Of a stretch of 64,000 nucleotides of DNA, positions 1,623 through 7,600 are shown in pieces. Numbering within the stretch: position 1 is the first letter of the stretch; each line of letters begins with the position of its first letter. The notes beneath the pieces were generated by a model. That model made no database searches. It worked only from the letters and a program-made list of their open reading frames with translations, and was not told where the DNA came from. The stretch comes from Sipunculus nudus (lineage: Eukaryota; Annelida; Sipuncula; Golfingiida; Sipunculidae), in NCBI GenBank assembly GCA_026874595.1, contig CM049314.1, positions 55,225,812 to 55,289,811 of the forward strand, given 5' to 3'. Made by a program: the position numbers and the translations under genes.

Positions 1623-4600
1623 CTTCTACCTTTGTGTCATCTTTGGCTTTATATTCTGTGTTTTTAATGGCCAGTTCCACACCATATCCTGATAAACGCA
1701 CCTTTTTATTGACTGGATTCTAAAATGAAGTGATAATTCAGTTAGACTGAACAGAAAAGACAGAAACCTAGAGATCAGATGTCTATGCATGGACAGAGCA
1801 GCTCTAGCTTATCTATCTCTCTCACTCTCTCTCTCTCTCTCTCTCTCTCTCTCTCTCTCTCTCTATTTATATATATATATATATATATATATATATATAT
1901 ATATATATATATATATATATATATATATGAGCATTTTTTAACAGTAATCATGTTTTTATTGTTTTAAGTAGACCTGTTTAAACACCAAAGTGAGACTCTG
2001 AAGCTCAATGGTAACATTCCTAATGGATTACAGATGTAAGTAAATCATACAGTGATACAATATATAATGTAACCAAACCTAGGAAAAGTGAATTACTAGT
2101 ACTTCTGAAATACATGGTGAGTAATCGTTATATTTATTACTTCCATGTAATTAAAAAAGAAATGCTGATTAGATGGGAATTCAAGTTGCCAAAACAAATG
2201 TGTACATTACATATGCAACCCTAAACCAAAATCTCTTTTAGGATAAACAAAGCAATATTATGCCATTCTTACTTTTACAAAGTGTCTAAGTATGTAGTTG
2301 ACTTCCCCATCTTCTGCTAATTTTTTTAGTTCTTTATGGTAATCTTTGAAGCCTTTGCTTGTGAAGTCTGCATACAAGATGGCTGTAACATCGTGATTCT
2401 GACTGCCAGGATAATGGTGGTCATTCTTCAGTATCGAAGGTTTATTTCTGTTGAAACAAGAATTTAAACAAGCATATTTTTTTTAATGAACTGATATCAT
2501 AATGAGAGCTAATGAGTGTCTGATGTTTTAAACATAACTGAATTTATAAATGAAATGACAAAACTTCTTAACAATTTATGTCACATATTTTGTCAGTATT
2601 TGTTATATTTTAAATTGAACATATCTGATATTTTTACTTTGCAAGGAGAAATTACCTACCAATGGATATTACATTTATTAAAATGAAAATATTGATCGAA
2701 AACAATTCTTAAGTTTCAAGGAACACAATCATGCCTCATACATATTTCATAACAATTTGTTTGGATACTACTTTTAAGAGGACATCTGAAGATCTGTTCA
2801 GTTTAAGCAAACATATAAAAGATTTGAACTCACTGTTTTTTGGCTAAACTGAGCATTGCTTTGAAAGCACCCATCTCACAGGTGATCATATTGTTTACAT
2901 CAACAAACAATTCACAGTTTTCTGGGGCCTGTTTATCAAGGGCCACCTACAACATACAGAACCATAACAACATCATACAAAATCAAACCTGTTATTTGAG
3001 CATTTGTATATGTGATAGTTAACAGTATGCTTCACTAGGCATCTATTGCAGCCAGTTTATCTTTTACATTTGAATTCTGAAACAACATTTTTAAATAATA
3101 TACAACAATGAAATCATAAACACTGATGCCAAACTTTATTAAGATATTTATTGGGAAATTAATCCTGAGAACACCTGAATAATTTTAATTAATACAGCCA
3201 ACTGAATTTAATTGAATCCATTTTTTTTAAGTATATGCAACAATTGATAGATATATTTAACTGCCATTTTTACATAAAACTAAAATGTTTAATAGACCAA
3301 TAACCACGAATATTCTAATTGTAAGTTACAAGACCCAGTAAATGACATTATATTTTAAATTTATGTTGTACCATGTTCAAAAGAATTGTTTCTCACACAT
3401 TTTGATTCTTCAATAAAACAATAAAAGATCTTGTTTTGGCTTGCATTATTCACCAGCAGGAACTGTTTTTGAGTTTTACTTTTAGTATGAATATAGCACA
3501 GGAATGGCGAATTTTTTTTATTATGACTGAACATAATAAACATCATCCGTGGCTGAGCCTGACAAGAGATTAGTGAAAAACAAGACTTTTGGAACTTGGG
3601 TTTACGTTAATGTTATGTGACCTGGTTTACCTGATAGTGCATCTGTACAGTGGGGGAGTATGCCCTCATGGACAGAGAGAACTTGAGCAGGTTAATTTGG
3701 AGTGGAGACAGCAGTCTGCCCGCAAACTTTAGGACCATGTCATACATGGACTCATCATGCTCTGTGGTTAAAACAAAGTTACCGTCAGATCCCACCGTCA
3801 CCGAAACAACCACATCACAACCCACTAAACTAAAGATATACACATCACAACTCACAAAAGTTTAGTAAACCCAATGGGATGCAGTCACTATCCAGTTAAG
3901 GAAAGCTTGCAGCATCTTTACTGAATAGCTCACCCCAACATTTTCATTAAACATGTAATATTTGTCTGTCTCTTCTGCACATATAATTTCAGGGAATTTA
4001 TGGTTAAAAATGCACAAATGATACAAAATACATGCAAAACTGGTAGAAAATATACCCCTGAAGTGACCGAAATCACTGATTTAGATACAGTGGAGAATAT
4101 TGCTGACACTTAGTAGGCCTTTTATTGATACATAATTAAATTTCACTTGTGGTATATGTTTACCAATCAGTTTTTAATGAGAAAATTATATCAGGACTCC
4201 TGCCAGACCCCAAATGAAATAGGAATTAAATAGGAGGACTTGTGACAAAATATAGGAATTTGTAGGAATTTTTATCCAAAAATACAAAAGTCTTCATTGC
4301 AAAATTGTGGTTTACTCGTCTATCATCCAAGCTGCTTCTAAATGTCTAATTAACTGGTGTAGATGGCAGCACTTGTATGACTTCATCATTTTAATGGACA
4401 GATTGACAAAAGAGTTGTTTGTCTTCTAAAACAATAAGTTTCTACAGCAATAATTAAATTCAGTAATAACAATTATACTGGAAATATCATTGTGCAGTGG
4501 AAAAATATAGGATATTTCACTCCTAATGATGTAAAATACACAAAACTATGGGAGTCAGCAGGAGCCCTGTAACATGTACAACTTCTCATTTACATTAATC

Positions 4601-7600
4601 TGCATCTCATAAATTTGTTTCATAATGAAAAGAATGTACTGAAGAGAGAGACTCACACAAAGAGTAGAGACCTAGTGAGACATACGGGTTACACATACAA
4701 TTAGTGAGCCCTATTCATGCATGGTAAACTTTACACTGTTATATGATCATCCTTCTACCACACCCTAGTACTGAGTAAATAAGTCAACCTCATTCTGTCC
4801 ATGATTTATAAAGTTCATTTAATTTCTACAGAAGTCTTGAACAGTTTTAAATGCATGTGCATTTGCACAATAAAATATCAGAAATTAAATTAAAACTCTT
4901 CAAACATCTGTTTGTAGTAAGTTTTCAAAATTTCAGCCAAAAGTTATGATGTGAAATCAAACAACAGACCTTCTGTACACATATTTGATGCACCAGTACA
5001 CAAAATCAATAAATAACTATTAGGTGTGTGTGTATTTGTACAAAGAAATATAAGAATTTAGATAATGTGAAATCTTGTTAACACAACCACCTGCTGGACA
5101 AGCCAAAGTGTTCCTGTTAGTGCAGTGGTCATGTAAGCGGGAAGTTTTTATGATTATTTACATTAGTCTGGCACCAAAATAAATGGTCATCTTAGTAGGG
5201 GTGGTCATGACAGTTGGGTGGTTGTCAGATAAGATTTCACTGTATTTGTAAAAGCAATCCAATAAAAATCAGAACTTGAACATACAAAGTTGTTAACATA
5301 TACATGTATTACATAAATAATACCTACTGTATACTGGACAAAACAGAGGTTGACTTATCTAATTATAAAAAGGATGTCTTTGGGTTTGTGTGTGGTTACT
5401 GAGACACCCAGAGACTGTGATCTGTCACCACTGCTGAGAATCCAGTACCTGTTGATGCATTTGAACAGCAGGAGAGTAAGCTCGCAGAGACAGTGCAAGC
5501 TTGAATAGATTAACACCTGATTCAGGTATTAATTCTGAGGTCTTCGCCAGAGCCAGCTCATACATAGCTGCCTCATCATCTGTAGACATGTAACAATATC
5601 ATTATTCCTGGTTAAGTAACATACAGTGAAACCTGTGTTATGAGACCACCCATAGGACTGGCAAAAAGTGGTCTTATTAGACACCCAAAGGTGGTCTTTA
5701 TAGACAAGAGGTCTTTCAGACAGGTTCCACTTTACCAATAAATATACACAAATTCTTTATGAGGAACTGATTACAAAGTTCATGAAAAAGGTTTGTATGC
5801 TGTACTTTAGTATCAATGAGATAAGATTATAACTAAATAATTAATATTTGTCATATATTGTAGACATATTGATGTTTTGTTAACATGTTACTCTATTTGG
5901 AAGTCTATCCACTTTTTAATAGAATTACAAATGTAACTTCACTGATGCAATGAGCCATCTGTCGGATTACATAATAAACAAAATCAATTGTCTTACGGTC
6001 TTCATAGTTGTCATATGGCAAGTCTGCAATCATGTTGACAAATCTCCAAAATAAATCATGATCTTCACTGGCCAAGAATTCACTGAAGAGACAAAATGTA
6101 TAGGTTTCATTTTTTAACATTCATCCAAATGGACAATGATGCTTTAATTACTTGAACACTGACATCAAAATTACACACTTACACATAAAAACCAACATAC
6201 AAAATAGAATTTTTAAAAGAAATTCTGGTCCAATAATTCAACCAATTTTTCCCTCAAACTCTTTTTCGAATCAGGGTCGGGTTTTATCCAGATAAAACTT
6301 GTTTAATCAAGGACAATGGGTAAAACTGGGTTTTATCTAGTTTAATCCAATTTTATCCGGATTATACAGGATTAAACTGGATCAAACTAAGAATTACCTT
6401 GTAAAATTTAATTACATTAACATATGCTAATCATAAATGCTGAGGTTTATTAATATATAAACAATACATTTTCCTCCAGGTTCATGTTTCACTGTTGTCA
6501 GCAGCCACTATAGCTTATGCTCAACACACACCAGAATGAGGAGCAGTCTCTTTGTCTTCTAAACCAAGTTACTCTTGATAATAGTCAATTTCTCAATAGG
6601 ATACACAACATCTTTTTAGCATCATCCTCATCCATCAAATACAGTGAAACCTCGCTGTGTCGAACTTGCTCAAGTCAAATACCCTGCTTAGTTTGAAGTT
6701 ACAGACTGATATTCAGACAACTCAAGTTTAATTATAACCAAATAAAACCTGCTTGTTTCGAAACCCCGGATGTGTCAAAGTTTTCTGAGGGTCCCTTCGA
6801 CTTCAACACAACCAGGTTTCACTGCATTTACTCATAGTCACAGGGCAGGCATAAAATGTTGACTTTTGCAGCCCAATTATTGAATTTTCAACAAAATATG
6901 GAGGTTTCTCATCTCAGGCTGTAATGACTGGCTGGTTGACATATGGTAGCCCACTGTTGCTGCTTGTGTAAACATGCCTTACCCATGATGAAAAGGACAA
7001 GGAATAACACTACTAAGTCACATCAGAGAAACCAACTTGGAAAGGACAGCTTATCAATCATTTATCATTTGCGTCTGAGAAGTCAGCCCCGCAAAATTAT
7101 GGACACCTGATATAACTGTATATCTAGTCATTTATGCAATAAATGACTGAATTATGTACATGTCTGTCAGATGGAAGAATGGATGTTTATCTGTGAATAT
7201 ATGATATTCTATGGTACCACTGATTGTTTAACTAAACATGTGAACTGATGTTGTTTAGCTTTTTTATAGTGTAATGTAAGAAATAGGTGAAAATGTTTTA
7301 ATAAGTCAAACCCTGACTGACCTCACAAAATAAGAGCAGATTCACAATTATTATTTAGATCATGGCATCATTATCTATGAAAAATATGTGTTTTATGTAT
7401 AAATCTTTGGTCACAAAAATTCAGTTAGCTAGACACAAATATTTCTTATTAGAACTGTATTATTTTAACGTGGAAAGCTAAACTTTATATAAAATGTCAA
7501 CTTCACAGACAGTATACACTCAAACTTAGATGAAACTTGATGAAACCTGTATTATCCAGATTAATCCAGTTGATTAAACCAGCTACGGATAAAATTGCCA

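What the first reader, a model, noticed from the sequence alone, without database searches (positions are those of the whole stretch)
3631..5579. Frame-enforced mutually exclusive exons in UGGT
Two exons of exactly 131 nt, with the same entry and exit phases and ~43% identical products, occupy the same position in UGGT. Inclusion of both gives a stop within eleven codons, and skipping both gives a stop within about four. Each productive transcript must therefore choose one. The segment is in the first thioredoxin-like domain of the folding sensor, so the choice could tune which misfolded clients are recognised. I know of no description of this for the mollusc gene. Copy 4b keeps the usual UGGT sequence; 4a has changed in its first half.
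Basis: partly seen in the sequence, partly recalled or inferred. Interest (0 to 1): 0.85.

Follow-up and report, generated by a model that had tools for sequence, protein, structure and literature searches.

The report
Two alternative exons in UGGT
An animal's gene for UGGT, the enzyme that checks whether new proteins are folded, carries two old, different versions of one short exon that the reading frame allows only one at a time, so the animal can probably make two forms of the sensor, though no RNA evidence was available.

Summary
On the minus strand two 131-nt exons (4a 5579-5449, 4b 3761-3631) lie between exons 3 and 5 of UGGT, with AG/GT borders and the same phases. Either alone gives an open TRXL1 domain; both give a stop at the 11th codon of 4b, neither a stop at the 4th codon.

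It is not chance. Of 392 AG-131-GT stretches in the window 18 are open; against 4b, 4a scores 107 and the next 22. The 4a isoform fits Pfam Thioredoxin_12 at 178.7 bits (4b 187.1; six shuffles of 4a 122-128).

The duplication is old (dS saturated). In the second half 0 of 22 second codon positions but 13 of 22 third positions differ: constraint. The first half (14/9/14) shows none.

One UGGT locus was found in the genome. Best reading: mutually exclusive exons filtered by frame and NMD, swapping helices of the four-helix subdomain of TRXL1. U2AF1 exons Ab/3 work this way; oyster AOX exon 10 is a mollusc parallel. I found no UGGT case in the open-access searches. Not shown: transcripts of either form, conservation in relatives, the species, any effect on clients.

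The parts
11388..11405 (-). UGGT exon 1, coding part (ATG at 11405)
   Evidence: donor CAG|GTAAGT
8195..8316 (-). UGGT exon 2 (122 nt)
5997..6082 (-). UGGT exon 3 (86 nt), upstream neighbour of the pair
5449..5579 (-). alternative exon 4a (131 nt), diverged in its first half
3631..3761 (-). alternative exon 4b (131 nt), closer to the Pfam profile
2834..2946 (-). UGGT exon 5 (113 nt), downstream neighbour of the pair
2273..2447 (-). UGGT exon 6 (175 nt)
1623..1719 (-). UGGT exon 7 (97 nt)
3762..5448 (-). intron between 4a and 4b (1687 nt), too long for steric exclusion

Best explanation
Exons 4a and 4b are an old tandem exon duplication used as mutually exclusive alternatives. Shown from sequence: both are complete exons with matching phases; 131 nt is not a multiple of three, so only 4a alone or 4b alone keeps the frame; both fit the TRXL1 (Thioredoxin_12) profile; protein constraint since the duplication is visible in the second half. 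Inferred: transcripts with both or neither meet early stops with many exons still to come and are removed by nonsense-mediated decay, as in U2AF1, and donors lacking G at +5 on both copies leave the choice to trans-acting factors. The product is one UGGT with one of two helical segments in the four-helix subdomain of TRXL1. On the first helix the presumed buried side is better kept than the other side (there K to A, F to K, R to E from 4b to 4a), so the likeliest effect is a changed surface on an unchanged fold, altering what TRXL1 touches: a client, TRXL3 across the cleft, or a partner protein. Which of these is unknown.
For: Gene model, phases, stops. 4a is the only open AG-131-GT stretch of the window, 4b itself aside, that resembles 4b: 107, next 22, from 18 open of 392; 0 of 20,000 shuffles reach 107, maximum 51. 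PF18400: 4a isoform 178.7 bits, 4b 187.1; six of six shuffles of 4a 122.1-128.1; exons alone 36.9 and 44.6. Codon-position differences 22/9/27 overall, 8/0/13 in the second half; NG86 dN 0.47, dS 3.0. Best coding signature of 616 minus-strand ORF pairs tested over 71.5 kb holding the gene, p = 2.8e-5. 4a has FKLALSLR, identical to Chaetomium UGGT, where 4b has LKFSLSMR; 4b has HYQ as in that chain where 4a has HQQ. Flanking introns share nothing convincing (best E 0.12). Of eight donors only those of 4a and 4b lack G at +5. One UGGT locus, with matches to the later domains downstream on the same strand. Helix-face test p = 0.04.
Against: No RNA evidence at all. No relative examined: scans of viral contigs and genome contigs found none and the genome has no relatives in the tool. 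In the first half the differences are 14/9/14 and 4 of 22 residues are identical, so constraint there is not shown and decay of that half is not excluded. dS is saturated, LWL85 failed and YN00 returned nothing. The helix-face test has 15 positions, an axis taken from the same sequences, a weak hydrophobic moment for 4a (0.17 against 0.51 for 4b) and p = 0.04. The 4a donor scores 0.1 on a recalled U2 matrix and is not the best GT nearby, though exon 3's scores -0.1; pyrimidine counts before 4a and 4b are within the range of the other exons. No intron complementarity above shuffles.
Confidence: 0.77

Rival explanations
1. 4a is a little-used or poison exon: 4b is the working exon, and 4a is spliced in mainly together with 4b, giving an early stop that lowers UGGT output through decay.
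For: 4a+4b stops at the 11th codon of 4b; the 4a donor is weak; the first half of 4a shows no constraint signature; 4b fits the profile 8.4 bits better.
Against: A poison exon needs no protein constraint, yet the second half shows 0 of 22 second-position and 13 of 22 third-position differences, and 4a lifts the domain score by about 50 bits over shuffles. 4a alone is productive.
Confidence: 0.13
2. 4a is a decaying relic of an alternative exon that was used in the past and is no longer, or hardly, included.
For: First half 4 of 22 residues identical with no third-position excess; weak donor.
Against: No stop in 44 codons, both splice borders intact, exact length kept although synonymous sites are saturated.
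Confidence: 0.08
3. Assembly or haplotype artefact.
For: None found.
Against: The copies differ at 58 of 132 nt, the flanks are unrelated, and both sit in one contig of 79.8 Mb.
Confidence: 0.02

Closest known systems
U2AF1 exons Ab and 3 (PMC5224494; passages read)
   Same: Tandem homologous exons; transcripts with both or neither contain stops and are lowered by NMD; each alone is productive; the segment includes helix.
   Different: Different gene and role; the U2AF1 copies differ by just seven residues, here 25 of 44 differ ungapped; U2AF1 usage is shown by RNA, here it is not.
Oyster (Crassostrea virginica) alternative oxidase exon 10 (PMC5589949; abstract read)
   Same: One tandemly duplicated exon in a mollusc gene; second copy conserved, first diverged; products of the same size; the diverged form rises under air exposure.
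   Different: Last exon of a mitochondrial enzyme; expression was measured there, not here.
OGDH exons 4a/4b (PMC7969005; abstract and passages read)
   Same: Mutually exclusive pair in a metabolic housekeeping gene.
   Different: There exclusivity comes from branch points 25-41 nt from the 4a donor; here the intervening intron is 1687 nt and its last AG-free stretch starts 1624 nt from the donor.
COQ2 a/e exons (PMC12403961, one passage read; PMC7434440, search listing only)
   Same: Tandem homologous exons in invertebrates that switch a property of one enzyme.
   Different: Different gene; the functional outcome is known there.
UGGT1/UGGT2 gene duplicates of vertebrates and Caenorhabditis (PMC7003075; start of abstract, term search)
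   Same: Two forms of the folding sensor with different properties.
   Different: Whole-gene duplicates there; here one locus with one duplicated exon.

Membership tests
Mutually exclusive tandem-duplicated exons (criteria of PMC3228551, passages read) | Similar length | tested here: met
   131 and 131 nt
Mutually exclusive tandem-duplicated exons (criteria of PMC3228551, passages read) | Compatible splice sites and conserved reading frame | tested here: met
   AG/GT on both, same entry and exit phase, no in-frame stop
Mutually exclusive tandem-duplicated exons (criteria of PMC3228551, passages read) | Homologous products | tested here: met
   19 of 44 identical; 0 of 20,000 shuffles as good
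Mutually exclusive tandem-duplicated exons (criteria of PMC3228551, passages read) | Exactly one included in mature mRNA | not testable with these tools
   No RNA held; frame argument only
UGGT | TRXL1 (Pfam Thioredoxin_12) with either exon | tested here: met
   187.1 and 178.7 bits, cut-off 26.1
UGGT | Later domains and GT24 catalytic domain in the same gene | tested here: met
   PF18402, PF18403 and PF18404 exon matches downstream, same contig and strand; the exons were not joined into one transcript, and one of the two PF18402 matches is under its cut-off
Steric exclusivity | Branch point within about 50 nt of the upstream donor | tested here: not met
   1624 nt from the 4a donor to the AG-free stretch before 4b; branch point itself not mapped
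U2/U12 spliceosome incompatibility | A minor-class donor on one copy | tested here: not met
   No U12-like donor in the six introns from exon 2 to exon 7
Competing RNA structure (docking and selector) | Complementary, conserved intron elements | tested here: inconclusive
   No perfect complementarity above shuffles in three intron pairs; no relatives to test conservation

The most novel reading that the evidence does not exclude
The misfolding sensor itself comes in two splice-selected versions in this animal: one UGGT gene makes two TRXL1 surfaces, switched by tissue or stress, so that its range of clients, or its binding of a partner such as SELENOF, is set by splicing where vertebrates use two genes.
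Probability: 0.25. Interest if true: 0.78.

Novelty: new member of a known kind. Interest (0 to 1): 0.52.

Why it matters
How UGGT recognises misfolded clients, and what TRXL1 adds, is open: the TRXL1 deletion of Chaetomium UGGT did not express (PMC8024514, passage). A natural swap of 44 residues in that domain would be a ready-made probe: two UGGTs that differ nowhere else. It would also be a splicing-based way to have two UGGT forms, beside the gene duplicates of vertebrates and Caenorhabditis.

Tried and rejected
Retrocopies as transcript fossils: a joined exon 3-4b-5 query found only the three exons at this locus. RNA families in 1-12000: none at gathering threshold. RNA pairing between introns: a first script timed out; a lighter one (perfect pairing only, 30 shuffles of one partner per pair) showed nothing. 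Other exon duplications in the gene: the self-comparison was swamped by repeated intron sequence; after a codon-position filter 4a/4b ranks first. Structure: only the two 43-aa exon fragments were folded (mean pLDDT 73.0 and 80.8, pTM 0.35 and 0.37), because the spliced domain is not a contiguous translation of the window; no fold search was run on such weak models. A mollusc marker (haemocyanin beta-sandwich, PF14830) had no match, but its control rang nowhere, so it says nothing. A paper that I recalled on the UGGT1-SEP15 interface is not held, so nothing is claimed from it.

Full report
WHAT IS THERE. The minus strand of the first 11.4 kb of the window carries the 5' part of a UGGT gene. 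Splicing its exons in a script gave an open frame from the ATG at 11405 through exon 7. Both isoforms match one Pfam family at E up to 0.001, Thioredoxin_12 (PF18400), over residues 39-220 and profile positions 1-189 of 190: 187.1 bits with 4b and 178.7 with 4a, cut-off 26.1. Among solved structures each isoform matches seven distinct sequences up to E = 1, six of them UGGT. The gene runs beyond window position 1: on the same contig and strand lie two matches to PF18402 (one under its cut-off), two to PF18403 and six to the catalytic family PF18404, at C9:55174785-55179104, about 62 kb from the start codon. In the 1.43-Gb genome all three PF18400 matches, and all matches of those three families, are at this locus, so one UGGT locus was found; the search scores only its best candidates, and PF06427 and PF18401 did not complete.

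4a is 5579-5449 and 4b 3761-3631, 131 nt each, AG and GT borders, entry phase 1, exit phase 0. Either alone leads in frame into exon 5. Both together stop at the 11th codon of 4b (nt 31-33 of 131). Skipping both stops at the 4th codon. Further exons follow in both cases, so decay of such transcripts is expected from general knowledge of NMD; it was not tested.

MORE THAN CHANCE. On both strands of the window there are 392 AG-131-GT stretches; 18 are open in the required phase; scored against 4b they give 225 (4b itself), 107 (4a), then 22. None of 20,000 shuffles of 4a reaches 107; the maximum is 51. Six of six shuffles of 4a placed in the isoform drop the PF18400 score to 122.1-128.1, so real 4a is worth some 50 bits of domain fit. 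In 71.5 kb covering the gene, 651 ungapped pairs of minus-strand ORFs were found, 616 were long enough to test for third- against second-position change, and 4a/4b ranks first at p = 2.8e-5 (0.017 after multiplying by 616); the next, p = 0.001, belongs to a group of mutually similar ORFs in intron repeats.

AGE AND CONSTRAINT. Ungapped, the copies share 74 of 132 nt and 19 of 44 residues; differences by codon position are 22, 9 and 27. In the second 22 codons they are 8, 0 and 13 with 15 residues identical; in the first 22 they are 14, 9 and 14 with 4 identical. NG86 gives dN 0.47 and dS 3.0, which is saturated; LWL85 failed and YN00 returned nothing (all). The introns flanking the copies share no convincing match (best E 0.12). 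So the duplication is old and the second half has stayed under protein constraint; for the first half no constraint is shown. Against fungal chains, counted without gaps over 27 columns taken, 4a matches 12 and 4b 10 for Chaetomium (6ts2), and 4a 8 and 4b 10 for 5y7o; each copy keeps residues that the other lacks. I recall the motif SPLQ of 4b from vertebrate UGGT1; it was not looked up.

WHERE IN THE PROTEIN. The exon covers profile positions 41-82 of 190. Two crystal papers place a four-helix subdomain before the thioredoxin fold of TRXL1 (PMC8024514 and PMC5610325, passages); that the exon falls in it is my inference from position. The 43-residue fragments were predicted as three helices each: 2-16, 19-33, 36-42 for 4b and 2-20, 24-33, 36-42 for 4a, at modest confidence. 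In the first helix 4 of 8 positions on the greasy side are identical and 0 of 7 on the other (mean BLOSUM62 2.6 against 0.1), permutation p = 0.04; the axis came from the same sequences and 4a's moment is weak, so this is a hint. Net charge of the exon goes from +1 (4b) to -2 (4a). TRXL1 is one jaw of the TRXL1-TRXL3 clamp, and its deletion in Chaetomium UGGT did not express (PMC8024514). UGGT has a selenoprotein partner, Sep15/SELENOF, whose function is unknown (PMC7563561, passages); where it binds was not found here.

HOW THE CHOICE COULD BE MADE. Steric exclusion is unlikely: the intron between the copies is 1687 nt and its last AG-free stretch starts 1624 nt from the 4a donor, against a threshold of about 50 nt (PMC7969005). 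A U2/U12 mismatch is unlikely: no U12-like donor in six introns. Perfect complementarity between the introns does not beat shuffles (14, 6 and 4 of 30 shuffles as long or longer). What remains is frame plus NMD with regulated recognition. In keeping with that, the six other donors carry G at +5 and neither 4a (gtactg) nor 4b (gtaaac) does; by total score, however, the exon 3 donor is as weak as that of 4a, 4b's (3.3) is about that of exons 5 and 6 (2.8, 3.5), and pyrimidine counts before the acceptors (10 and 11 of 17) are within the range of the others (10-15). [quoted passage not shown]

WHAT IS KNOWN. Searches for UGGT with mutually exclusive exons (2 papers; 8 papers), with splicing (3 papers), with TRXL1 and clamp terms (83 papers, 15 listed) and with bivalve or oyster (185 papers, 10 listed) listed no paper whose title or abstract start describes this. 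The two papers were checked by terms: one lists UGGT2 in a table of macrophage genes without more detail in the passage, the other uses the words apart. The UGGT1 disease paper and the study of UGGT gene duplicates (no word beginning 'exon' or 'splic') describe none in the passages or terms seen. Two surveys of human events do not name UGGT in their main texts; supplements could not be read. A mouse Uggt2 exon is listed as included after TDP-43 depletion (PMC6440020, passage); I did not compare its position. For a mollusc parallel, oyster alternative oxidase has a duplicated exon whose first, diverged copy becomes dominant under air exposure (PMC5589949, abstract).

VERDICT. A real, old and partly constrained pair of alternative exons in the UGGT gene found in this genome; a new member of a known kind. 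The exciting part, a splice-switched folding sensor, is plausible and untested.

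Noticed in passing
window 1-632: Tandem array of a 44-bp unit, 14.4 copies, 93% matches, beyond exon 7 in the same gene.
   Followed up: no
window 5622-5739: Fragment of a dispersed repeat that ends 42 nt before exon 4a; related pieces at 38806-38861 (93%) and 38913-38970 (81%).
   Followed up: partly
own genome C9, about 55181360-55184308 and 55199010-55201511 (loci L013-L015): Mutually similar repeated sequence in introns of the same UGGT gene; it gave many of the ORF pairs.
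   Followed up: no
window 1812-1928: Adjoining (TC)n and (TA)n microsatellites between exons 6 and 7.
   Followed up: no
window 60075-60911 (+): Longest open stretch of the window, 279 codons stop to stop; no Pfam match at 0.01 for it or for nine other open stretches scanned.
   Followed up: partly
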